Source of the DNA: Cetobacterium somerae
Lineage (GTDB): Bacteria > Fusobacteriota > Fusobacteriia > Fusobacteriales > Fusobacteriaceae
Reading direction: 5' to 3'
Assembly: GCF_022430525.1 (NCBI RefSeq)
Contig: NZ_CP092519.1
Coordinates: 1,366,454-1,430,453, forward strand
DNA length: 64,000 nt
Part shown: piece by piece, positions 20,739-31,490 of the stretch
Layout: every line of letters starts with the position of its first letter
How positions within the stretch are numbered: the first letter of the stretch is position 1
Position numbers and translations under genes: made by a program
Notes under the pieces: generated by a model
Database searches by the model: none
What the model saw: only the letters and a program-made list of their open reading frames with translations
Told to the model about the DNA's origin: nothing

Positions 20739-21245
20739 CTATCTATGAGATTTTTTATCTCCTGTCATTTGAACAACATCTCCATCTTTTAAATTATATG
20801 CTTGTCCAAATCCTTTTACAAATCTTCCATTAACTATATTTAATTTTACTAAATGAAAATCTTGCATTTTACGAACAACTTTCATTCCTTCTCCAACTTT
20901 CTCTTCAAAAGAATCTAATATTGTATTAAATTTTTCATCTCTTTCCTGAAATTCAGCTATTACATTATATCTTAATCTCTTTCTTACTAGAACTGAAGCT
21001 GCATCTTTCTCATCTTGTAAAAACATAATTTCAAATTGAGGATTATCTTTTAAATTATCAAAATGATCTCCAATTTCACTAATGTAAATATATCCTTCTC
21101 CTTGGAAATCTAAGTATGGAGCATATGTCACATCAACATCCCCATTTTTAGATTTTGTTCCTAATATAACTGATTTAAAATCTCCTCTAAACTCTTCTAC
21201 CTCTTTTTTTATTTGTTCTTTATCAAATTTTATTGGCATCATCAT
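20739..21245 (-). CDS. HugZ/HutZ-like heme-binding split-barrel protein
   Basis: This 168-residue protein has the pyridoxamine-oxidase-like split-barrel pattern of HugZ/HutZ heme utilisation proteins. The middle contains GYIYISEIGDHFDNLKDNPQ and FLQDEKDAASVLVRKRLRY. The end has HLVKLNIVNGRFVKGFGQAY, a stretch typical of HugZ/HutZ, which degrade heme with oxygen in aerobes. In a strict anaerobe it may bind or store heme instead. The ATG at 21245 is chosen from the GGAG 11 bases upstream; the same frame extends to 21320 but without a ribosome site. It is the last gene of the heme island and has its own promoter. Confidence 0.8.
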   Translation of the reverse strand: MMMPIKFDKEQIKKEVEEFRGDFKSVILGTKSKNGDVDVTYAPYLDFQGEGYIYISEIGDHFDNLKDNPQFEIMFLQDEKDAASVLVRKRLRYNVIAEFQERDEKFNTILDSFEEKVGEGMKVVRKMQDFHLVKLNIVNGRFVKGFGQAYNLKDGDVVQMTGDKKSHR

Positions 21246-21291
21246 AATTATTTTTTCTCCTTTAATTTTGCTAATCAAACTATTTAGGTAT

Positions 21292-21347: not shown

Positions 21348-23048
21348 TTATAAGTTTCCAGCTTTGTACATATTAAAAAATACACCTTTTTTATCAATTA
21401 AACTTTGAAAATCGCCTATTTCCTTAATTCCATCTTTACCTAAAACTACAATTTTGTTAAAATTTTTAAGTGTATTTAATCTATGAGCTATTGAAATTAT
21501 TATTTTATCTTCAAATTTCTGTAGAATATTATCCATTATTTTTTTCTCTAAAATATTGTCCAAGGCTGAAGTTCCTTCATCTAAAAATATGATTTCTGGG
21601 TCTTTTAAAAATAATCTTGCCATTGATAACCTTTGCTTTTGTCCTGAACTTAATTCAATTCCACCTTGACCTAGTTTTGTATTTTCTTTCTTTTCTAAAC
21701 TTTCTACAAACTCTTTTAATTCAGCTAATTCCAATGCTTCTTCTATCTCTTTTTTTGTTGCGTCTCTTTTTACCACTTTTATATTCTCTAATATTGTTTC
21801 ATTCATTAAACTATCTCTCTGATCGACTATCGCTATTCTATTTAATAAACTTTTTCTATCTACCTCGTGGATACATAAATCATTTATAAAAATTGTATTT
21901 TCTTCAGGTAAAAATGTTCTTTTTAAAAGTGAAAATATTGTTGTTTTTCCTACTCCACTCTCTCCAACAAATGCTACTTTTTCTCCTTTTTCTATAGTTA
22001 TTGATAAATTTTTTATAACTTCCTGTTTATCAAATGCAAAATTTAATCCATCTACCTTTATACTATCTATATTTTTTTCTATAATTGTATTTCCATCTTT
22101 AATATTTGGAATATTCATAACTTCTAAAAACCTGCTTATTCCTGTAGCTCCTCTTTGAAATACATCTACAAGTCCCATAAGTCTTAAAAGATACACCCTA
22201 AATCTATTAGTCAATAATATAAAACTCACAATAACTCCAAAACTTATTTCACCTTTTATATGCATGTATCCACCTATAAATATAACAATAAGTTGAGTAA
22301 GTTGATTATAAAAATTAATACCGGACATTAAAGCTGATGTATTAAATATATTATTTTTTTCTACACTTAATAACTCTTTATTTTTACTTGAAAACTTCTC
22401 TAAAGTATCTTTTTCTAGGACATTATCTTTTATAAAGAATATAGTTTTCAACGAATCGTGAATTCTTGATGTTAATTTAGAAAATCTTTCTCTTACTTCT
22501 ATGTAGCCATATTTTAATTTCTTATTTTGAATTATTGTAAAATATATGGCTATTGGTAATGGAATCATTGTTATTAAAGTTAACTTCAAATTAAAAGTAG
22601 CCATTAAAGCCATAGCTCCGGCTATTGATAATATTGAAAATAAAAAATCTTCTAGTCCTCTATATAAAAGAGCTGAAACATTTTCTAAGTCATTTGTAAC
22701 TCTTGATATGATATCTCCACTTTGATTTTTCATAAAATATGTATCTGGTTGATTTAATATTTTTTTAAATAAATCTTCTCTCATAAAAAATTTTATTCTA
22801 TTTCCCATCAACTGTCCTCTTGAACTAGAGTAAATTGATAAAAATAATCTTATAATATAAAGTGTTAATAAAAAAGCTGAGAACATAAAAAATTCATTTA
22901 AATTTTTCTCGGGAATTGAGTTATCAATTAAATTTTGGACAACTATCGGTCCATATAAATCTAGTACGGTCACAAAAAAACTGCTAACTAAAAAATAAGT
23001 TAGCAGTTTTCTTTCTTTTAAATAGTACTTGAAAATACTATTTAACAT
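21348..23048 (-). CDS. ABC exporter (fused membrane and ATPase domains) in the heme operon
   Basis: This 566-residue half-transporter has six membrane helices (about 1-300) and a C-terminal ATPase domain with Walker A GESGVGKTT, signature LSSGQKQRL, Walker B IIFLDEGTSALD and the switch histidine SIAHRL. It belongs to the type IV (MsbA/lipid-drug) exporters, working as a dimer. Its start overlaps the end of the periplasmic binding protein gene by 11 bases, so translation is coupled to the heme importer. Its cargo is unknown; candidates are excess heme, porphyrin or the linear tetrapyrrole made by the radical SAM enzyme. Confidence 0.9.
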   Translation of the reverse strand: MLNSIFKYYLKERKLLTYFLVSSFFVTVLDLYGPIVVQNLIDNSIPEKNLNEFFMFSAFLLTLYIIRLFLSIYSSSRGQLMGNRIKFFMREDLFKKILNQPDTYFMKNQSGDIISRVTNDLENVSALLYRGLEDFLFSILSIAGAMALMATFNLKLTLITMIPLPIAIYFTIIQNKKLKYGYIEVRERFSKLTSRIHDSLKTIFFIKDNVLEKDTLEKFSSKNKELLSVEKNNIFNTSALMSGINFYNQLTQLIVIFIGGYMHIKGEISFGVIVSFILLTNRFRVYLLRLMGLVDVFQRGATGISRFLEVMNIPNIKDGNTIIEKNIDSIKVDGLNFAFDKQEVIKNLSITIEKGEKVAFVGESGVGKTTIFSLLKRTFLPEENTIFINDLCIHEVDRKSLLNRIAIVDQRDSLMNETILENIKVVKRDATKKEIEEALELAELKEFVESLEKKENTKLGQGGIELSSGQKQRLSMARLFLKDPEIIFLDEGTSALDNILEKKIMDNILQKFEDKIIISIAHRLNTLKNFNKIVVLGKDGIKEIGDFQSLIDKKGVFFNMYKAGNL

Positions 23049-23922
23049 TTGATAACTCCTTGTATAACTCCTCTAAAGCATCAATCACTCTAGGCGTTCC
23101 TCTTAGTATTTTATCTGATTCAATTATCATTATATTCCCTTTTTGTCCCGCTTTTGTTTGTTTTACAACTGGATTACTATTTAAAATATCATTTTTATTT
23201 TTTATAGCCATTGAACCTACAAGTATATCCGGATTTTCTGCTAATAAAAATTCTGGCGACAATATTGGTCTTCCACCTGGTAACCCTTTTGCTATATTTT
23301 CTATCCCTAAAGTATCGAAAATTTGACCTGGTAATGAATTTGGACTAAATACCATCATTGGAGATGTTGAAAATAAAAATCCTCCCTTTATATTTAAAGG
23401 TTTTTCTGCTATTTTCTCTTTTATCATTTTTAATTTTAAATTATAACTATCAATTAATCTATCTATATTTTCTTCCTTTCCAGTTATAACTCCATATATT
23501 TCTAAATTATTTAAGATTTGTTCAAAAGAATTAGCTTCATTAATTATAAAGTTTAATTTCCTTGCTTTTAAACTTTCTCCAAAACTTTCAGACATAGTAT
23601 TTAGTATTACTAAATCTGGGCCATACATTAAAACTTGTTCTACTGAAGGTTTCATTATTGTTCCTGCTTTTGGTAAATCCTTTGTTTTTTCTTGTGGCCA
23701 AATTGGATTTTTTGCAGTGTCTGCTATTGCTACTATATTATTTTCTCCACCAATTAAATAAAATGCTTCTACTGCTGCCGGATCTAATATTAAAACTTTT
23801 TTATACTCTTTCTTTTCTATTTTATTACCTCTTGAATCTATAATAAAATCATTTTCTATTTTTAAAGCATAAACTAGATTACTAATTAAAATAGTAAAAA
23901 TTAATGTTATTACTCTTTTCAT
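23038..23922 (-). CDS. Periplasmic heme-binding protein of the ABC importer
   Basis: This 294-residue protein has a signal peptide (MKRVITLIFTILISNLVYA) and a periplasmic binding fold of the BtuF/FecB type, with VLILDPAAVEAFYLIGGENNIVAIADTA in the first lobe and SMAIKNKNDILNSNPVVKQTKAGQ in the second. It carries substrate from the receptor to the permease. No lipobox cysteine is visible. It lies 8 bases after the ATPase gene; heme as substrate is inferred from the operon. Confidence 0.88.
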   Translation of the reverse strand: MKRVITLIFTILISNLVYALKIENDFIIDSRGNKIEKKEYKKVLILDPAAVEAFYLIGGENNIVAIADTAKNPIWPQEKTKDLPKAGTIMKPSVEQVLMYGPDLVILNTMSESFGESLKARKLNFIINEANSFEQILNNLEIYGVITGKEENIDRLIDSYNLKLKMIKEKIAEKPLNIKGGFLFSTSPMMVFSPNSLPGQIFDTLGIENIAKGLPGGRPILSPEFLLAENPDILVGSMAIKNKNDILNSNPVVKQTKAGQKGNIMIIESDKILRGTPRVIDALEELYKELSNVK

Positions 23923-23930
23923 CTTTCCTC

Positions 23931-24704
23931 CTAAACTAATGGAATAATATACGGTATTCCACTCTCATCTTTTATAACTTTAGCCTTTAAATTATAAACT
24001 TTTTGTAAATTTTCTTCTGTTAAAACTTCGGATGGTGTTCCTTGATATTTTATCTCTCCATCTTTCATCATAATAAGTTCATCACAAAACATGGCAGCTA
24101 AATTTAAATCATGTAATACTGCTACTCCTGTTAAAGATTTTTCAGCCACTAAGCTTTTTACCTTATTTAATAATTCAACTGCATGATTTAAATCTAAAGC
24201 TGAAGTTGGCTCATCTAATAATAGAATTTCTGGATCTTGAGTTAAAGCTCTTGCTAATAAAACTCTTTGAAACTCTCCTCCAGAAAGACTAATCGCTACT
24301 CTTTCAGAAAATTTTTCCAATCCTAAAAACTTTAAATTATCCTCAACTTTTCTTCTATCTTCGTATGAATATCCTGCCCAACTAGATTTTAAATGAGGAA
24401 GTCTCCCCATTAAAACAAAATCCTTTACTGACATATTTGTCATTAAGTTTGACTTTTGTGGAACTAAAGAAACCAATCTTGCCTTCTCTTTTTTGGAAAG
24501 CTCCTTTGTTTCCTTTCCATTAAATTCAATATCCCCTTCACTTGGATTTAAATATCCTAATATATTCTTTAAAAATGTTGATTTACCACAACCATTTGGT
24601 CCTAATATCCCAGTCATTTTCCCTTTAGTTATATTAACTTTTAATTTTTTTAAGATCTCTCTCTCTCCATAAGAAAATGACAGATTATTTACTCTTACAC
24701 CCAT
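23931..24704 (-). CDS. Heme ABC importer ATPase
   Basis: This 257-residue ATPase belongs to the FepC/HmuV/BtuD group. It has Walker A GPNGCGKST, a Q-loop in LVSLVPQKSN, signature LSGGEFQR, Walker B EILLLDEPTSALD and the switch histidine VLHDLN. It powers uptake with the permease, whose stop overlaps its ATG. The binding protein gene follows. The role in heme import comes from the neighbouring genes. Confidence 0.92.
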   Translation of the reverse strand: MGVRVNNLSFSYGEREILKKLKVNITKGKMTGILGPNGCGKSTFLKNILGYLNPSEGDIEFNGKETKELSKKEKARLVSLVPQKSNLMTNMSVKDFVLMGRLPHLKSSWAGYSYEDRRKVEDNLKFLGLEKFSERVAISLSGGEFQRVLLARALTQDPEILLLDEPTSALDLNHAVELLNKVKSLVAEKSLTGVAVLHDLNLAAMFCDELIMMKDGEIKYQGTPSEVLTEENLQKVYNLKAKVIKDESGIPYIIPLV

Positions 24705-25672
24705 TAGTTTCCTCCTTTAGCTTTAAATGCTAAGTATAAGAAAAATGGAGCTCCAAAAAATGCCGTAACAACTCCAATTGGAATCTCAACAGGTGCTAAA
24801 AACAATCTTCCTATTGTGTCACAAATTAATAGAAAAAATCCTCCTGCCAAGGCAGCGTTAGGAATTAATCTAGAGTTAGATGGTCCTACTAACATTCTTA
24901 TTGAATGAGGTATAATTAATCCTACAAAACCAATCATTCCTGAAAAAGCAACTGAAAATGCTACAACTAATGCTGATACTGTTAATACTTTTGCTTTCAA
25001 TGTATGGACGTCAACTCCCAAAGAGTTAGCTTCTTCATCTCCTGACAATAATGCATCTAATTGATTTCTTTGTAAGTAAAAAAATATTAAAGAAAAAACT
25101 AATGGAATTATAAGTAAAAATACCTTTGTCCAAGTCGCTCCTCCTAAATATCCCATTAACCACATAGTTATCTTAAAAGATTCTTCTCCTATTAAATACA
25201 TAGCAAAAGATGTAAAAGCACCTATAAAAGCTGATACAGCTATTCCTACTATTAAAAGAGTTGTTATATCAACCTTACCACTTCTATTTGATAACTTAAA
25301 TATAATGAACGTACTTATTAAGCATGATAAGAATGCCAGTACTCCATAAAAAATATCTGGTAATTGAAATACGTATGCTATCACAGCTCCAAATGTAGCA
25401 CTTGCTGCAATTCCTATTATATATGGATCAGCTAGTGGATTCTGGAATACTGCTTGAACTACTACTCCACTTGATGAAAGCATCATTCCTATTAATAATG
25501 CCATTACTATTCTCGGTAATCTTATATCATAAATTATTGTTTTTATATAATCTGGTGCTGTACTTATGGAAAATAGTTGTTCCAATGGTACAGAAACACT
25601 TCCTAAACCAATAGAAAGTGTTCCTGTTAGTATTATTCCCAGAATTAATATTAACGATATGTGTTTTTTCAT
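24704..25672 (-). CDS. FecCD-family heme ABC importer permease
   Basis: This 322-residue membrane protein belongs to the FecCD/BtuC/HmuU family. Typical stretches are IYDIRLPRIVMALLIGMMLSSSGVVVQAVFQNPLADPYIIGIAASATFGAVI, of which the NPLADPYIIG motif is diagnostic, and FSGMIGFVGLIIPHSIRMLVGPSNSRLIPNAA near the end. About ten helices are visible. It overlaps the ATPase gene by one base and follows the TonB-dependent receptor gene by 17 bases. Confidence 0.93.
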   Translation of the reverse strand: MKKHISLILILGIILTGTLSIGLGSVSVPLEQLFSISTAPDYIKTIIYDIRLPRIVMALLIGMMLSSSGVVVQAVFQNPLADPYIIGIAASATFGAVIAYVFQLPDIFYGVLAFLSCLISTFIIFKLSNRSGKVDITTLLIVGIAVSAFIGAFTSFAMYLIGEESFKITMWLMGYLGGATWTKVFLLIIPLVFSLIFFYLQRNQLDALLSGDEEANSLGVDVHTLKAKVLTVSALVVAFSVAFSGMIGFVGLIIPHSIRMLVGPSNSRLIPNAALAGGFFLLICDTIGRLFLAPVEIPIGVVTAFFGAPFFLYLAFKAKGGN

Positions 25673-25689: not shown

Positions 25690-27723
25690 TTAGAAATTGT
25701 ATTTAAATCCTGCGTAAAGACTTCTCTCTGCAGCTGGATTATACTCTTTACCATCTGAACTTATAGAGTTATAATACTTTTCATTAAATATATTATTAAT
25801 TCCTGTATAAACTCTTAAATTTTCAATTGGTCTATAATTTAATGTTAAATTTGTCACAATATTTTCATTCTGTTTACCCTCTGTATTTTTATTACTTAAA
25901 TAATAACCTGATGAATAAACTGTATCCCAAATAACATTAACTTTTGAAGTTATCTTATAATCTAATGCTATATTAAATCTATTTGTAGGAACATCTGCTA
26001 TTTCATTTCCCTCAATTGATTTATCTTGATCTTTTAATATTTTTGTCTTAACTAAAGCATACCCTTCTCTTACTGTTAGATTTCCAAAATATTGCTCTGC
26101 ATTTAACTCTAAACCGTATCTTCTTGTTTTTCCAATATTATAATTTCTAAAATTCATTCCACTATAATTTTCTGTTGCTATTTCATCATTTGTTTCAGTT
26201 AAATATATTGCTCCACTTATAAAACTTCCAAATATATAATCTTTAAAACCTGTTTCATATGTTATATATGTTTCTGAATCTAAATCATTATTAATATATG
26301 CTCCATCTATTTTATCTACTAATTGTGAAGGTGTTGGAGAAGTAAATCCCTTTTCTCCCTTAATATAGATATTTCCTGTCTCTGAATATAAATAGTTTCC
26401 TACTAATTCATAAGCCATATTTTCCATAGTTGTTTTTCTATTTATACTTGTATCTGATGTTGTTGTCCCACTTGATAAAGAACTTTTTTTATATGATCTA
26501 TCAGTTTTATAATCTGCATATTCATATCTTACACCTTGAGTAAATTCAAGTTTACCAATTGCATTTCTATTTAAAATAAACATACTATGAGTATCTTTAG
26601 TTAAATCATTTTTATATTTTTCTGAACTAAACATATCCATTTGACTATCTCTTTTTAAGTTGTTATTTATATAGTCATACCCTAAAATTAAACTGCTTGA
26701 TTCTCCATAACTAACTTTTAATTTTGGTTTAAATCCTATCTTTTCATCAGTATAATCCATATAATTTTTAACACTATAACTCATTTTTTCATAATTATTT
26801 TCATTATATATATCTGTTTTCTGATAAAATCCAACTAAGTCTAAAGTTACTTTTTCATTAAATTTGTATTCATATTTTCCTGTAAATTCGTCTTTCTTAG
26901 TATTATTAACAATTAACTCATCATATTTACCAACAAGACCATTACTTTTAGGATTTGATAACATCTCTTTTGTAAGAGCTCTAGGTGATGTTGCGTCATC
27001 CTTATATCTCGAGTACTTAAAGACAAAACTTTGATTTTCATCAATTTTATATTTTAAACTTCCCTCAAAATACTCTGAATCTGATTCATCTCCATCTCTA
27101 AATCCTTTATAATCATTCTTAGTATAATTAATACTTATACCTAAATCTCCAACTGTTGTTCCATAAGAAACCTCACCTTTTTTCCCACCAAAAGTATTTA
27201 GCTCTCCTGAAACAGAACCTCCTGTATAACCTGCTCCTGATTTTGTCACAATATTTATTATTCCACCTCTTGTTCCACTTCCATAAAGAATGGCTCCCCC
27301 GCCTGGAATAACCTCAATTTTTTCAATATTTTCAACTGGAACTGTATTAATTGGTGTTTTTGCATGAGATGTATCTAATAAGTTTACACTTACACCATCT
27401 ATTAAAACTTGTACATTTGCTGTTGCTTTACTTCCTTGCCCTCTCATATCAATTATTGGATCTTTTGGATCTCCTATTAAATTGACACTTGGTACATCTT
27501 TTAAAGCCTCTGATACAGATTGATAATTCTTTTCCTCTATATCTTTAGCTGTAATAACTGTTACTGTATTTGTTACATTTCTTTGTGCTGTTTCAAACCC
27601 CGTTGTTGAAATCACACTTTCATTTAATTTAACCCCTTTATTAGCTTCTTCATAGAAAAAATCATCATTTGAATAACTTAAAGCTGTTACTATTAAACTT
27701 AGTACTGCTATTCTTTTGTTCAT
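25690..27723 (-). CDS. TonB-dependent heme receptor
   Basis: This 677-residue outer-membrane protein has a signal peptide (MNKRIAVLSLIVTALSYS), a plug domain (about 45-165; TVITAKDIEEKNYQSVSEAL and GGGAILYGSGTRGGIINIVTK), and a beta-barrel ending in SLYAGFKYNF with the terminal phenylalanine needed for assembly. Barrel segments alternate hydrophobic residues throughout. It takes up its ligand with energy from TonB-ExbBD, encoded next to it. Heme is the likely ligand from context; the FRAP/NPNL heme box was not clearly seen, so a siderophore or other metal complex stays possible. Confidence 0.92.
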   Translation of the reverse strand: MNKRIAVLSLIVTALSYSNDDFFYEEANKGVKLNESVISTTGFETAQRNVTNTVTVITAKDIEEKNYQSVSEALKDVPSVNLIGDPKDPIIDMRGQGSKATANVQVLIDGVSVNLLDTSHAKTPINTVPVENIEKIEVIPGGGAILYGSGTRGGIINIVTKSGAGYTGGSVSGELNTFGGKKGEVSYGTTVGDLGISINYTKNDYKGFRDGDESDSEYFEGSLKYKIDENQSFVFKYSRYKDDATSPRALTKEMLSNPKSNGLVGKYDELIVNNTKKDEFTGKYEYKFNEKVTLDLVGFYQKTDIYNENNYEKMSYSVKNYMDYTDEKIGFKPKLKVSYGESSSLILGYDYINNNLKRDSQMDMFSSEKYKNDLTKDTHSMFILNRNAIGKLEFTQGVRYEYADYKTDRSYKKSSLSSGTTTSDTSINRKTTMENMAYELVGNYLYSETGNIYIKGEKGFTSPTPSQLVDKIDGAYINNDLDSETYITYETGFKDYIFGSFISGAIYLTETNDEIATENYSGMNFRNYNIGKTRRYGLELNAEQYFGNLTVREGYALVKTKILKDQDKSIEGNEIADVPTNRFNIALDYKITSKVNVIWDTVYSSGYYLSNKNTEGKQNENIVTNLTLNYRPIENLRVYTGINNIFNEKYYNSISSDGKEYNPAAERSLYAGFKYNF

Positions 27724-27741: not shown

Positions 27742-29004
27742 TTACTTTTTTATTAACCCTAAAGTTTTTTCAACAACTGTTGTTAAAATCTCTCTAGATA
27801 TATTGTTACCCCAAAATAAGCCATCTTCAGTTAGTTTATAATGTTCTTTATCTTCTAATATAAAATTATTCTCTTTTAACTCAAATAGCAATTCTTCAAA
27901 AGCTATCATTTCTTCAGATGTTAATATATCTTTTACTATATTTTTATCTATTTGTGGAAATTGAAATAATCCGCTAAATTTATCCAATCTTTGTTGATAA
28001 TCACTTTTTTCAACAAACATTGACATCTCTTTCTTCATTCTAAAAATAGATATATTATCAACATTTCCTCCGGCTCCAACTCCAATTGGAAAAGTGTCTC
28101 CTCCAAAGTTTCTAGTCTTTATATATTTATATTTATCTCTTCCTTTTTTTGCTATTTTTGTTAACTCCAATGCGTAATAATCACTATCTTTAGTTAACTC
28201 TTTTATAAACGCATCATGTAACTCTCTCTCTTTTTTTAAATCCTCTTGAACTTTAACTTTTTCATCTTTTATGTCATGAGATAATGTTGACCCTTCATGA
28301 ACCATTAATGAATAAAAACTTGAACTTCCTAAATCTAACTTTTTTATAATCTTAGCATCCTCTATAGCATCCTCTATTTTTTGCGTTGGATAGTTATAAA
28401 TAATATCTATGCAAACTTCTCCATTAAATTTTTCTTTTAATTGAATTAATCTTTCTATTGTTTCATTTTTCGAATACGTTCTATTGTAAAATTTTCTTCC
28501 TTCATCTGAGAAACTTTGAATACCCACAGATAATCTATTAACTCCATATTTATTCATTAACTCTATTTTTTCATCATTTAAATTATGTAATGTTGTTTCT
28601 AAAGTAAATTCGTATTCTGTAGAAAATTTTATATTTCTATTAACACTTTGAAGTATTTTTTCCAATTGATTATTTTTATAAACTGTTGGAGTTCCTCCAC
28701 CAAAATATATTACATCTACACTTTTTTCCTTAAAATATCTATAATCTCCATATTTATCAAATTCACTAACTATATAATCTGCATAAGAATCTAAACTTCC
28801 ACTTAATTGCTCTCTATTTAAATTACAAAACGAACAAATTTTATCACAATATGGTGTGTGAACATATATCGCTCTTGGAACATCTTTAGGTTCCTCTTTT
28901 AATCTGTTTAAGAACTCTTCCTCTGTAACTCTTTTTTGAGGATAATACTTTCCTATCAATCCACTAGAATTATGATGACTCTTATATCTTGTTTCAAAAT
29001 GCAT
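27742..29004 (-). CDS. Radical SAM anaerobic heme-degrading enzyme (ChuW/HutW/HmuW type)
   Basis: This 420-residue radical SAM protein resembles HemN/HemW and the heme-utilisation branch ChuW/HutW/HmuW. The cluster cysteines are Cys53, Cys57 and Cys60 (CDKICSFC, a CxxxCxxC motif). VIYFGGGTPT and NRLSVGIQSFSDEGRKFYNRTY follow. ChuW-type enzymes open heme without oxygen, using a radical methyl transfer, to give a linear tetrapyrrole and free iron. The placement between the receptor gene and exbD makes this branch more likely than HemW. It is 17 bases upstream of the receptor gene and 7 bases after exbD. Confidence 0.88.
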   Translation of the reverse strand: MHFETRYKSHHNSSGLIGKYYPQKRVTEEEFLNRLKEEPKDVPRAIYVHTPYCDKICSFCNLNREQLSGSLDSYADYIVSEFDKYGDYRYFKEKSVDVIYFGGGTPTVYKNNQLEKILQSVNRNIKFSTEYEFTLETTLHNLNDEKIELMNKYGVNRLSVGIQSFSDEGRKFYNRTYSKNETIERLIQLKEKFNGEVCIDIIYNYPTQKIEDAIEDAKIIKKLDLGSSSFYSLMVHEGSTLSHDIKDEKVKVQEDLKKERELHDAFIKELTKDSDYYALELTKIAKKGRDKYKYIKTRNFGGDTFPIGVGAGGNVDNISIFRMKKEMSMFVEKSDYQQRLDKFSGLFQFPQIDKNIVKDILTSEEMIAFEELLFELKENNFILEDKEHYKLTEDGLFWGNNISREILTTVVEKTLGLIKK

Positions 29005-29011
29005 TATTTAA

Positions 29012-29449
29012 TCACTTCCCTTTAGTCTCTATATCTATTGCTTGTGCTCCAGCCAACTTTATATCTGACATTATATCTACCACATCTCCATAGTCGATTC
29101 CTCTATCAGCTAATATTGCTACTCTTTTATTTTCCATTAGTACAATTGTATTTTTTATTTTTTCTTGCAATTCATCTTTTCTTATATCTACTATGGAACT
29201 CTCTTTTTGTTTGTCTATTTTTATTTTTAGCTCTCCATTACTTGCAACTAAAATTGAAATTTTATCAATAGATTCTATTATTTCAGAAACCTCTGATTTA
29301 GGTAAATCTATTTTGATACCCTTCATATCATCAAATGTTGTAGCAACCATAAAAAATATCAGAAGTAAAAATACTACATCTATTAATGGAGTTAAATCTG
29401 GTGTTAATTGTTTTCTTTGATAATTCATAAACCCTTTTGATTTAAACAT
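29012..29449 (-). CDS. exbD: ExbD biopolymer transport protein
   Basis: This 145-residue protein has a cytosolic start (MNYQRKQLTPDLTPLIDVV), one membrane helix at about 24-42 with the proton-carrying Asp in LTPLIDVVFLLLIFFMV, and a periplasmic domain. It forms the TonB motor with ExbB. It follows exbB by 9 bases and precedes the radical SAM gene by 7. Confidence 0.93.
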   Translation of the reverse strand: MFKSKGFMNYQRKQLTPDLTPLIDVVFLLLIFFMVATTFDDMKGIKIDLPKSEVSEIIESIDKISILVASNGELKIKIDKQKESSIVDIRKDELQEKIKNTIVLMENKRVAILADRGIDYGDVVDIMSDIKLAGAQAIDIETKGK

Positions 29450-29458
29450 ATTCTATAC

Positions 29459-30082
29459 CTACATCTTTCTTAAAATATTTATAAATTCAACTACATTTTT
29501 TTCCATATCAACTAATGCTTTCTCAATTTTTTTTTGATAGAAGTTATAAAATATTAAAGCCGGTATCGCTACGATTAAACCTGATGCTGTTGTGATTAAG
29601 GCTTGAGAAATTCCAAAAGCTAGAACTGTTGGATCTCCTGCTCCATGTTTTGACATAGCTGTAAATGCTCCAATCATTCCTGTTACAGTTCCTAATAATC
29701 CTGCTAACGGAGTTACATTAGCTGCTAAAGCTAAAATCCACATATTTTTTTCTAATTTTGGCATCTCTCTTAAAGCACACTCTCTTGCTTTCTCTTCTAA
29801 ATAATCATAAGTGCAACAATTCATTTTTTCACCATTGTATTCTATTAAAATTGTTTTCATTACTTTTGCCGATGTATTTTTAAAGCAATCGCATGCTTTT
29901 ATAGCTCTTTCTCTTTCATTATTTTTAATAAATTTCTCTAAATGATTTATTAAAAGTTCTCCGTTATCTTTTTCATTTTTAAAGAAGTAATATCCTCTTT
30001 CTAATATCACACTAAGACCTGCTACTGATAAAAATATTATTACAGACATTAATGGTCCTCCTGCTTTGATTATATCTATCAT
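29459..30082 (-). CDS. exbB: ExbB/MotA-TolQ-family proton channel
   Basis: This 207-residue membrane protein has an N-terminal helix (GGPLMSVIIFLSVAGLSVILERGYYF), a cytosolic stretch, and two C-terminal helices with the family core LALAANVTPLAGLLGTVTGMIGAFTAM and ALITTASGLIVAIPALIFYNFY. It forms the proton channel of the TonB motor. The ATG at 30082 follows AGGAGGG by five bases; an upstream in-frame ATG at 30118 lies before that ribosome site and is rejected. It is the first gene of the leftward heme operon. Confidence 0.93.
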   Translation of the reverse strand: MIDIIKAGGPLMSVIIFLSVAGLSVILERGYYFFKNEKDNGELLINHLEKFIKNNERERAIKACDCFKNTSAKVMKTILIEYNGEKMNCCTYDYLEEKARECALREMPKLEKNMWILALAANVTPLAGLLGTVTGMIGAFTAMSKHGAGDPTVLAFGISQALITTASGLIVAIPALIFYNFYQKKIEKALVDMEKNVVEFINILRKM

Positions 30083-30122
30083 ACATTCCCTCCTAAAATT
30101 AAATATTTTGACATTCAAAGTT

Positions 30123-30216
30123 ATTATAATGATTTTGTACTAAATAGTCAATATATTTTTCAAACAAAGTATTTTTTTATAAATAATTTGATAATTAAAA
30201 TATTTTTTGTTATAAT
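30123..30216. promoter_or_regulatory. Divergent promoters of the heme operons (exbB and tonB)
   Basis: Leftwards, TTGACT (30151-30146) and TATAAT (30128-30123) are 17 bases apart. Rightwards, TTGATA (30188-30193) and TATAAT (30211-30216) are 17 bases apart. The rightward -35 overlaps TGATAAT (30189-30195), a perfect Fur half-site, but the other half is poor. Iron or heme control is likely but not shown. Confidence 0.7.
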
Positions 30217-30251: not shown

Positions 30252-30965
30252 ATGAAGTTTTTTATTTTTTCAATAGTTTTACATATATTTATATTTATTT
30301 TTGGTTTTTCTTTAGATTCAAATAAAAGTTTTGAAATTAATAATATTGGGAATGATTTTAGTACTCCATCTATCTCTGTTAATTTCAATTCAATGCAAAT
30401 AACTCCACAATTGCAACCAACTGAGTCATCAGATGAAATTCTAAAAGAGGTTTTAGAAGAAAAGGTAGAAGAAAAAATAGATAAAACTAAAATTGAGGAG
30501 AAAAAAAGAGAAGTTATAAAGAAAGAGAATAAAAAAAATTCTAAACCTAAAAAAGTTTTAGAAAAAAAGAAAAACGAACTCACTAAAAAATCTCAACAAT
30601 CAGAAAATACAAATACACCTACAAATACTAATACTGATTTAATTGAGCTCTCACAAGGTGTATTTGCTGCTAAAAATCAAGGGGTCCAAGGACTTAAATA
30701 TTCTTTTATTTCTCAACCTGATCCAGAGTATCCTTTAGCTGCTAAAAGAGTATCATACACTAAAGAAGTTTCTATTAAGGTTAGATTTCTTGTGGGATTA
30801 AATGGTGAAATTGAAGATATTAAATTTTACAGTGATAAAGATAGTTTAGGTTTCCAAAAAGAAGTCGAAAAAACTTTAAATAAGTGGAAATTAACTACTG
30901 TAACTTTAAATAACAAACCAATAAAACTATACTTTTATAAAGAATTTAAATTTAATCAAAAATAA
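30252..30965 (+). CDS. tonB: TonB energy transducer
   Basis: This 237-residue protein has an N-terminal membrane anchor (MKFFIFSIVLHIFIFIFGFS). A long periplasmic linker rich in Lys and Glu follows (about 70-135; EEKKREVIKKENKK and similar). The C-terminal TonB domain (about 150-237) contains PDPEYPLAAKRVSYTKEVSI, FLVGLNGEIEDIKFY and LNKWKL. Lys/Glu repeats replace the Pro-rich linker of the E. coli protein. It transfers the ExbBD energy to the receptor. It is transcribed divergently from exbB and precedes a flavodoxin-like gene by 18 bases. Confidence 0.92.
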   Translation: MKFFIFSIVLHIFIFIFGFSLDSNKSFEINNIGNDFSTPSISVNFNSMQITPQLQPTESSDEILKEVLEEKVEEKIDKTKIEEKKREVIKKENKKNSKPKKVLEKKKNELTKKSQQSENTNTPTNTNTDLIELSQGVFAAKNQGVQGLKYSFISQPDPEYPLAAKRVSYTKEVSIKVRFLVGLNGEIEDIKFYSDKDSLGFQKEVEKTLNKWKLTTVTLNNKPIKLYFYKEFKFNQK

Positions 30966-30983: not shown

Positions 30984-31490
30984 ATGAAAATACTTATTAC
31001 ATATTCATCAAAAACTGGAAATACAGAAAAAATAGCTCAAGCTATTCATAAAGGTATTCCAACTGCTAGCCTTTTACCTATCTCTGAAATTGTAAACTTA
31101 GATTATGATTTAATTTTTGTAGGAGGTTGGATTGACAGGGCCACTTTTGATCAAACAGCATTAACTTTAGCTAAACAAATTTTTGATAAAAATGTTGCAT
31201 ACTTCTTTACTTTAGGTGCTTATCCACACTCTGAACATGCTAAAGATTGTGTTAACAACATTGAAACTCTATTAAAAAATAATAATAACAATATTTTAGG
31301 CGGATACTTTTGTCAAGGAGCCATTGATCCAAAGTTAATCTCTTGGTTATCAACACTTCCATCTGATCACAAAATGTCTCCAAACGAAGAAAGAAAAAAA
31401 AGATGGGAAGATGCTAAATCACATCCAGATCAATTGGATTTAAATAAAGCTACTGAATTTAGTTTAGATATTATTTCTAAGTACAAATAA
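30984..31490 (+). CDS. Flavodoxin-like protein of heme catabolism (HmuF/BilS-like)
   Basis: This 168-residue protein has the flavodoxin FMN phosphate loop ITYSSKTGNTEKIAQAI at the start and the later flavin-binding loops FVGGWIDRATFDQ and FFTLGAYPHSEHA. Flavodoxin-like HmuF of Fusobacterium nucleatum binds heme and reduces the tetrapyrrole (anaerobilin) made by HmuW, and this gene lies beside the same gene set. The assignment is by fold and context. It is co-transcribed with tonB and ends at a strong terminator. Confidence 0.82.
   Translation: MKILITYSSKTGNTEKIAQAIHKGIPTASLLPISEIVNLDYDLIFVGGWIDRATFDQTALTLAKQIFDKNVAYFFTLGAYPHSEHAKDCVNNIETLLKNNNNNILGGYFCQGAIDPKLISWLSTLPSDHKMSPNEERKKRWEDAKSHPDQLDLNKATEFSLDIISKYK

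What the first reader, a model, noticed from the sequence alone, without database searches (positions are those of the whole stretch)
21348..23048. ABC exporter translationally coupled to a heme importer
The start of this MsbA-type exporter overlaps the end of the periplasmic binding protein gene by 11 bases, so it is made together with the importer. Heme uptake loci usually have no such exporter. It could remove toxic heme, porphyrin or the tetrapyrrole product after iron release, a detoxifying outlet that would be a new part of anaerobic heme breakdown.
Basis: inference. Interest (0 to 1): 0.6.

Follow-up and report, generated by a model that had tools for sequence, protein, structure and literature searches.

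The report
Exporter tied to anaerobic heme-uptake operon
In the fish-gut bacterium Cetobacterium and some relatives, an outward-type ABC pump is locked, gene over gene, to the heme-binding protein of the operon that imports heme and breaks it open without oxygen, which makes it a good but untested candidate for the missing exit route of the toxic breakdown product.

Summary
In this Cetobacterium genome the exporter gene (21348-23048, minus strand) starts inside the last 11 bases of hmuT (23038-23922), at the end of an ExbB-ExbD-HmuW-HmuR-HmuU-HmuV-HmuT operon with divergent TonB-HmuF.

The start overlaps hmuT in all 18 loci of three genera where the pair was read (4, 11, 14, 19 or 26 bases). 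The pair stays together in two genomes where HmuUV and HmuW are not linked to it. The exporter has intact ATPase motifs, is not MsbA, and belongs to a clade found only in Fusobacteriaceae so far. Its Cetobacterium paralogue sits beside a cobalamin-riboswitch CbiK/BtuCDF-like operon. In three Cetobacterium species MacAB-TolC genes follow the exporter directly.

Most likely it moves a heme-derived tetrapyrrole (anaerobilin, protoporphyrin or excess heme) out of the cytoplasm; substrate and direction are inferred. It is not an obligatory part of anaerobic heme breakdown: Fusobacterium, Leptotrichiaceae and other HmuW clusters lack it, and one Cetobacterium MAG has it deleted. An exporter-fold importer working with HmuT and a broad-specificity pump are live rivals. 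New variant of a known kind of locus; interest moderate.

The parts
21348..23048 (-). Type IV ABC half-transporter (exporter fold), 566 aa; canonical Walker A GESGVGKTT, signature LSSGQ, Walker B/catalytic Glu LDEGTS (E491), H-loop H522
23038..23048 (-). 11-base overlap ATGTTAAATAG between hmuT stop and exporter start; SD AAGGAG about 7 bases upstream
23038..23922 (-). HmuT-type periplasmic heme-binding protein (Peripla_BP_2)
23931..24704 (-). HmuV-type ATPase
24704..25672 (-). HmuU-type permease (FecCD)
25690..27723 (-). HmuR-type TonB-dependent receptor
27742..29004 (-). HmuW/HutW anaerobilin synthase (radical SAM)
   Evidence: best NCBIfam TIGR04107, 214 bits, below its 400-bit cut-off
29012..29449 (-). 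ExbD
   Evidence: assigned from sequence and position, not scanned against a family library
29459..30118 (-). ExbB/TolQ family
30252..30965 (+). TonB, divergent
30984..31490 (+). HmuF-like flavodoxin (candidate anaerobilin reductase)
   Evidence: Flavodoxin_3; role from PMC10404700
31537..32007 (-). HutX heme carrier
   Evidence: TIGR04108 125.5 bits, above cut-off 110
20739..21245 (-). HugZ-family protein, probably own promoter
   Evidence: TIGR04109 196.5 bits, below cut-off 240; promoter-like site
30107..30119 (.). Candidate operator palindrome TTTGACATTCAAA in the exbB leader

Best explanation
The gene encodes a homodimeric type IV ABC exporter that works as the outlet of the heme-iron pathway: heme enters through HmuR-TonB and HmuTUV, HmuF and HutX hand it to HmuW, HmuW opens it and releases iron, and the exporter pumps the leftover tetrapyrrole (most likely anaerobilin or its HmuF-reduced form, otherwise protoporphyrin) into the periplasm, from where an outer-membrane route such as MacAB-TolC can take it out. 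Overlap with hmuT keeps outlet and inlet in fixed proportion. Shown here: gene order, overlap and its conservation, intact ATPase motifs, co-inheritance, tetrapyrrole context of the clade. Inferred: direction, substrate, homodimer, coupling in the cell.
For: Overlap conserved in 18 loci of three genera with varying size, always overlapping; in two Cetobacterium species no SD is visible but the overlap is kept (L063, L064). Exporter divergence tracks HmuT, HmuV, HmuU and HmuW (r = 0.97-0.99). All 22 clade members (stem 100/100) lie beside heme-type or CbiK/BtuCDF-like genes; the Cetobacterium paralogue is divergent from a cobalamin-riboswitch operon. TolC-MacA-MacB genes directly follow the exporter in G003, G004 and G005, and MacAB-TolC expels protoporphyrin in E. 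coli (PMC4263509). Anaerobilin is described as cytotoxic, needing further reduction (PMC10404700); its exit is not mentioned. ChuW is reported to yield protoporphyrin too (PMC12670364). A human transporter of the same fold, ABCB10, exports biliverdin (PMC10090120).
Against: No substrate, expression or phenotype data. Many HmuW clusters lack the gene, so other cells dispose of the product otherwise. The HmuT-exporter pair persists without this HmuW in G017 and G074. HmuF already detoxifies anaerobilin. Context alone cannot fix direction.
Confidence: 0.42

Rival explanations
1. Excess-heme efflux pump for protection against heme itself, independent of HmuW, like HrtBA in function.
For: The pair persists in G017 and G074, which keep HmuUV but not this HmuW. 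Heme is toxic when uptake is high.
Against: HmuT and HmuUV would take the heme back (futile cycle). HrtBA is a MacB-type pump, not this fold (general knowledge). A HutW paralogue remains in both genomes, so a linear product is still possible.
Confidence: 0.2
2. Unrelated or broad-specificity exporter that rides along in an iron-regulated operon (bile, drug, lipid or peptide export).
For: Family searches give only generic type IV exporter scores; closest solved structures are multidrug and peptide pumps.
Against: The overlap with hmuT is kept through large sequence divergence and after operon break-up; the paralogue and other exporter groups also sit at tetrapyrrole loci.
Confidence: 0.2
3. Exporter-fold importer: the protein takes up a substrate delivered by HmuT (or a second HmuT ligand), as YbtPQ and IrtAB import iron-siderophores with an exporter fold.
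For: HmuT stays with this gene even where HmuUV are elsewhere (L191, L195, L274). Type IV importers exist (PMC10246721, PMC10967856).
Against: A FecCD-type HmuUV importer is present in every genome examined that has the pair. From general knowledge, YbtPQ and IrtAB are heterodimers; here a single gene. Neighbouring MacAB-TolC in three species points outward.
Confidence: 0.15

Closest known systems
hmu operon of Fusobacterium nucleatum (HmuTRUVWF; PMC10404700)
   Same: HmuT, HmuR, HmuU, HmuV, HmuW, HmuF, with ExbBD-TonB and HugZ in relatives
   Different: that paper names no exporter (words beginning 'export' or 'efflux' are absent from its text); Cetobacterium adds one overlapping hmuT
ABCB10, mitochondrial biliverdin exporter (PMC10090120)
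   Same: type IV ABC half-transporter; proposed substrate is a linear tetrapyrrole
   Different: no close sequence relation (not among the best 60 PDB sequences); bacterial, linked to a binding protein; substrate untested
MacAB-TolC protoporphyrin efflux (PMC4263509)
   Same: tetrapyrrole efflux; MacAB-TolC-like genes follow the exporter in three Cetobacterium species
   Different: MacB has a different (type VII) fold; the exporter here is type IV
YbtPQ / IrtAB (PMC10967856, PMC10246721)
   Same: type IV fold in an iron-acquisition locus
   Different: heterodimeric siderophore importers; here one gene beside a complete FecCD importer

Membership tests
Type IV ABC exporter (ABCB-like half-transporter) | ABC_membrane plus ABC_tran in one chain with full ATPase motifs | tested here: met
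MsbA lipid A exporter | Curated MsbA score; lipid A gene context | tested here: not met
   265 bits against 602; a better MsbA (497 bits) sits beside LpxB elsewhere
CydDC thiol/heme exporter | CydC/CydD curated score and paired genes | tested here: not met
   192/329 and 217/435 bits; single gene
Anaerobic heme-uptake (hmu) operon | HmuTRUV + HmuW + HmuF together | tested here: met
   HmuW is the best family hit but below its NCBIfam cut-off; HmuF assigned by flavodoxin family and position
Exporter-fold siderophore importer (YbtPQ, IrtAB) | Two half-transporter genes side by side (heterodimer) | tested here: not met
   single exporter gene in all loci read
Exporter-fold siderophore importer (YbtPQ, IrtAB) | Inward transport | not testable with these tools
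   needs transport assay
Tetrapyrrole exporter (ABCB10-like function) | Tetrapyrrole-stimulated ATPase and outward transport | not testable with these tools
   needs biochemistry

The most novel reading that the evidence does not exclude
A dedicated export pump for anaerobilin (or its reduced form) that forms a functional pair with the heme-binding protein HmuT, so that one binding protein serves both an importer and an outward pump: the first outlet described for the oxygen-independent heme breakdown pathway.
Probability: 0.22. Interest if true: 0.75.

Novelty: new variant of a known kind. Interest (0 to 1): 0.45.

Why it matters
How anaerobes get rid of the toxic tetrapyrrole left after HmuW/ChuW takes iron from heme is not described in the papers I could read, and for the related HmuS route the fate of protoporphyrin is stated to be unknown (PMC12583661). 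A linked, conserved, single-gene exporter candidate makes that question directly testable by a knock-out in a commensal genus that has cultured members.

Tried and rejected
MsbA: rejected by score and by the separate MsbA beside LpxB. Fur box scan with the E. coli-type consensus: 30 sites against 21.5 expected, uninformative in this AT-rich DNA. Foldseek and PDB sequence searches only return the general type IV class. A search of 398 genomes of the Selenomonas phylum found no close relative (the tool warns that an empty answer alone proves little), and HmuW-bearing genomes of other phyla have at best 34% identical exporters. A text search for bacterial tetrapyrrole export found nothing specific. 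G031, G022, G034, G067 and G084 clusters end at contig ends and cannot be scored. Residues Q79 and N83, fixed in hmu-linked exporters and HmuT-exporter pairs but K79/S83 in the cobalamin-linked paralogues, may mark specificity; not testable here.

Full report
What is there. The window lies in a Cetobacterium genome: its HmuW is 97% identical to a named uncultured Cetobacterium record. On the minus strand the genes run ExbB, ExbD, HmuW, TonB-dependent receptor, FecCD permease, ATPase, periplasmic binding protein, exporter; TonB and an HmuF-like flavodoxin run the other way from a shared promoter region, and HutX and HugZ families flank the set. The exporter ORF starts 11 bases before the end of the binding-protein ORF, with a Shine-Dalgarno sequence inside the latter.

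Is the overlap meaningful. In all ten Cetobacterium genomes in which the pair was read, the overlap is the same 11 bases, down to 66% exporter identity. In Propionigenium maris it is 26 bases; in a third genus (g7) it is 14, 14, 19 and 19 bases inside hmu clusters, and 11, 4 and 4 bases where the pair stands apart. Start codons were taken mechanically, so the 26-base case may be shorter. In L063 and L064 no Shine-Dalgarno is visible before the exporter start, which leaves re-initiation after hmuT as a likely way to translate it. Overlaps are common in bacterial operons, so this supports co-production, not a special device.

Who has it. Among Fusobacteriaceae HmuW clusters whose hmuT end could be read, 15 genomes carry the exporter after hmuT (10 Cetobacterium, Propionigenium maris, four of genus g7) and nine do not (G011, G032, G063, G064, G068, G069, G071, G072, G080). 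Leptotrichiaceae clusters lack it, as do the Spirochaete and Bacillota examples. In G011, a Cetobacterium MAG, the exporter has an internal deletion that leaves the first codons and the last 42 residues, and HmuR is missing too, while HmuTUVW remain; as a MAG this may be an assembly effect. So the exporter is a lineage-specific addition, not a required step.

What it belongs to. A tree of 34 exporters puts the hmu-linked proteins, the separate HmuT-exporter pairs and a Cetobacterium paralogue into one clade (100/100) on a long stem, apart from the genome's MsbA and another exporter (long branches make the outer order unsure). The paralogue (45% identical, C1:15138) is divergent from a cobalamin-riboswitch-controlled operon of a CbiK chelatase and BtuCDF-like importers. 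More distant exporters (36-39%) in other Fusobacteriaceae stand beside CbiK and cbi genes under the same kind of riboswitch. Tetrapyrrole context thus recurs.

The pair as a unit. In G074 the permease and ATPase lie alone, without binding protein, receptor or HmuW; in G017 they lie on the same contig as the pair but about 6.5 kb downstream, behind unrelated genes. In both, the HmuT-exporter pair still overlaps, and only a HutW paralogue is left. When the operon broke up, HmuT stayed with the exporter rather than with its importer. This is the strangest fact in the set and the base for the importer rival and for the novel case.

Efflux partners. In G003, G004 and G005 TolC, a membrane-fusion protein and MacB-like genes follow the exporter directly; in most other genomes the best-matching set is elsewhere, and none was found in the window's own genome at 1e-40. 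In G074 and G076 such a set lies 0.6 and 4.3 kb after a pair. E. coli MacAB-TolC expels protoporphyrin (PMC4263509).

Mechanism. All ATPase motifs are intact in the hmu-linked proteins, so a working homodimer is likely. AlphaFold2 gives a type IV fold (pLDDT 80), nearest to TM287/288, PCAT1 and Sav1866. Anaerobilin carries a reactive methylene group and is called toxic; HmuF reduces it (PMC10404700). Export of the reduced or unreduced product, or of protoporphyrin, would explain why the pump is co-made with uptake. Export of heme itself would be undone by HmuT. Substrate and direction remain inferences.

Verdict.

Noticed in passing
L219:8197-10404 (G088, same order): One 735-aa open frame joins a complete HugZ-family domain (residues 32-280) to a HutW domain (329-709): oxygen-using and oxygen-free heme breakers in one chain. 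L226:6786-8435 has only the N-terminal part of HugZ (about 90 residues) before HutW.
   Followed up: partly
window 30107-30119, 30187-30199, 21267-21279; G000:C2:458592, C4:44303, C1:1617890, C1:1659149: Palindrome near TTTGATWATCAAA lies in leaders of exbB, tonB, hugZ, the HutW paralogue, a TonB receptor/DUF454 pair, a ferredoxin and a small protein: a candidate iron or heme operator, also seen in relatives. The genome-wide count is not above the control.
   Followed up: partly
L076:11898-12074 and L076:10027-11736: Cobalamin riboswitch before CbiK and two BtuCDF-like importers, with the exporter paralogue divergent from it; same in L209.
   Followed up: partly
L063, L064, L248: TolC-MacA-MacB set directly after the exporter in three Cetobacterium species (before HugZ in two); elsewhere the matching set stands alone or beside CbiK (L249, L250).
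   Followed up: partly
L062:10109-10366: Cetobacterium MAG G011 lost most of the exporter and all of HmuR but kept HmuTUVW.
   Followed up: partly
L069:4072-5895, L216: HmuW with an N-terminal extension of about 65 residues in Propionigenium and genus g12, followed in L069 by a DUF454 gene.
   Followed up: no
G000:C2:457322-458551: Second HutW-like gene (43% identical) outside the operon in the same genome, with its own operator-like palindrome.
   Followed up: no
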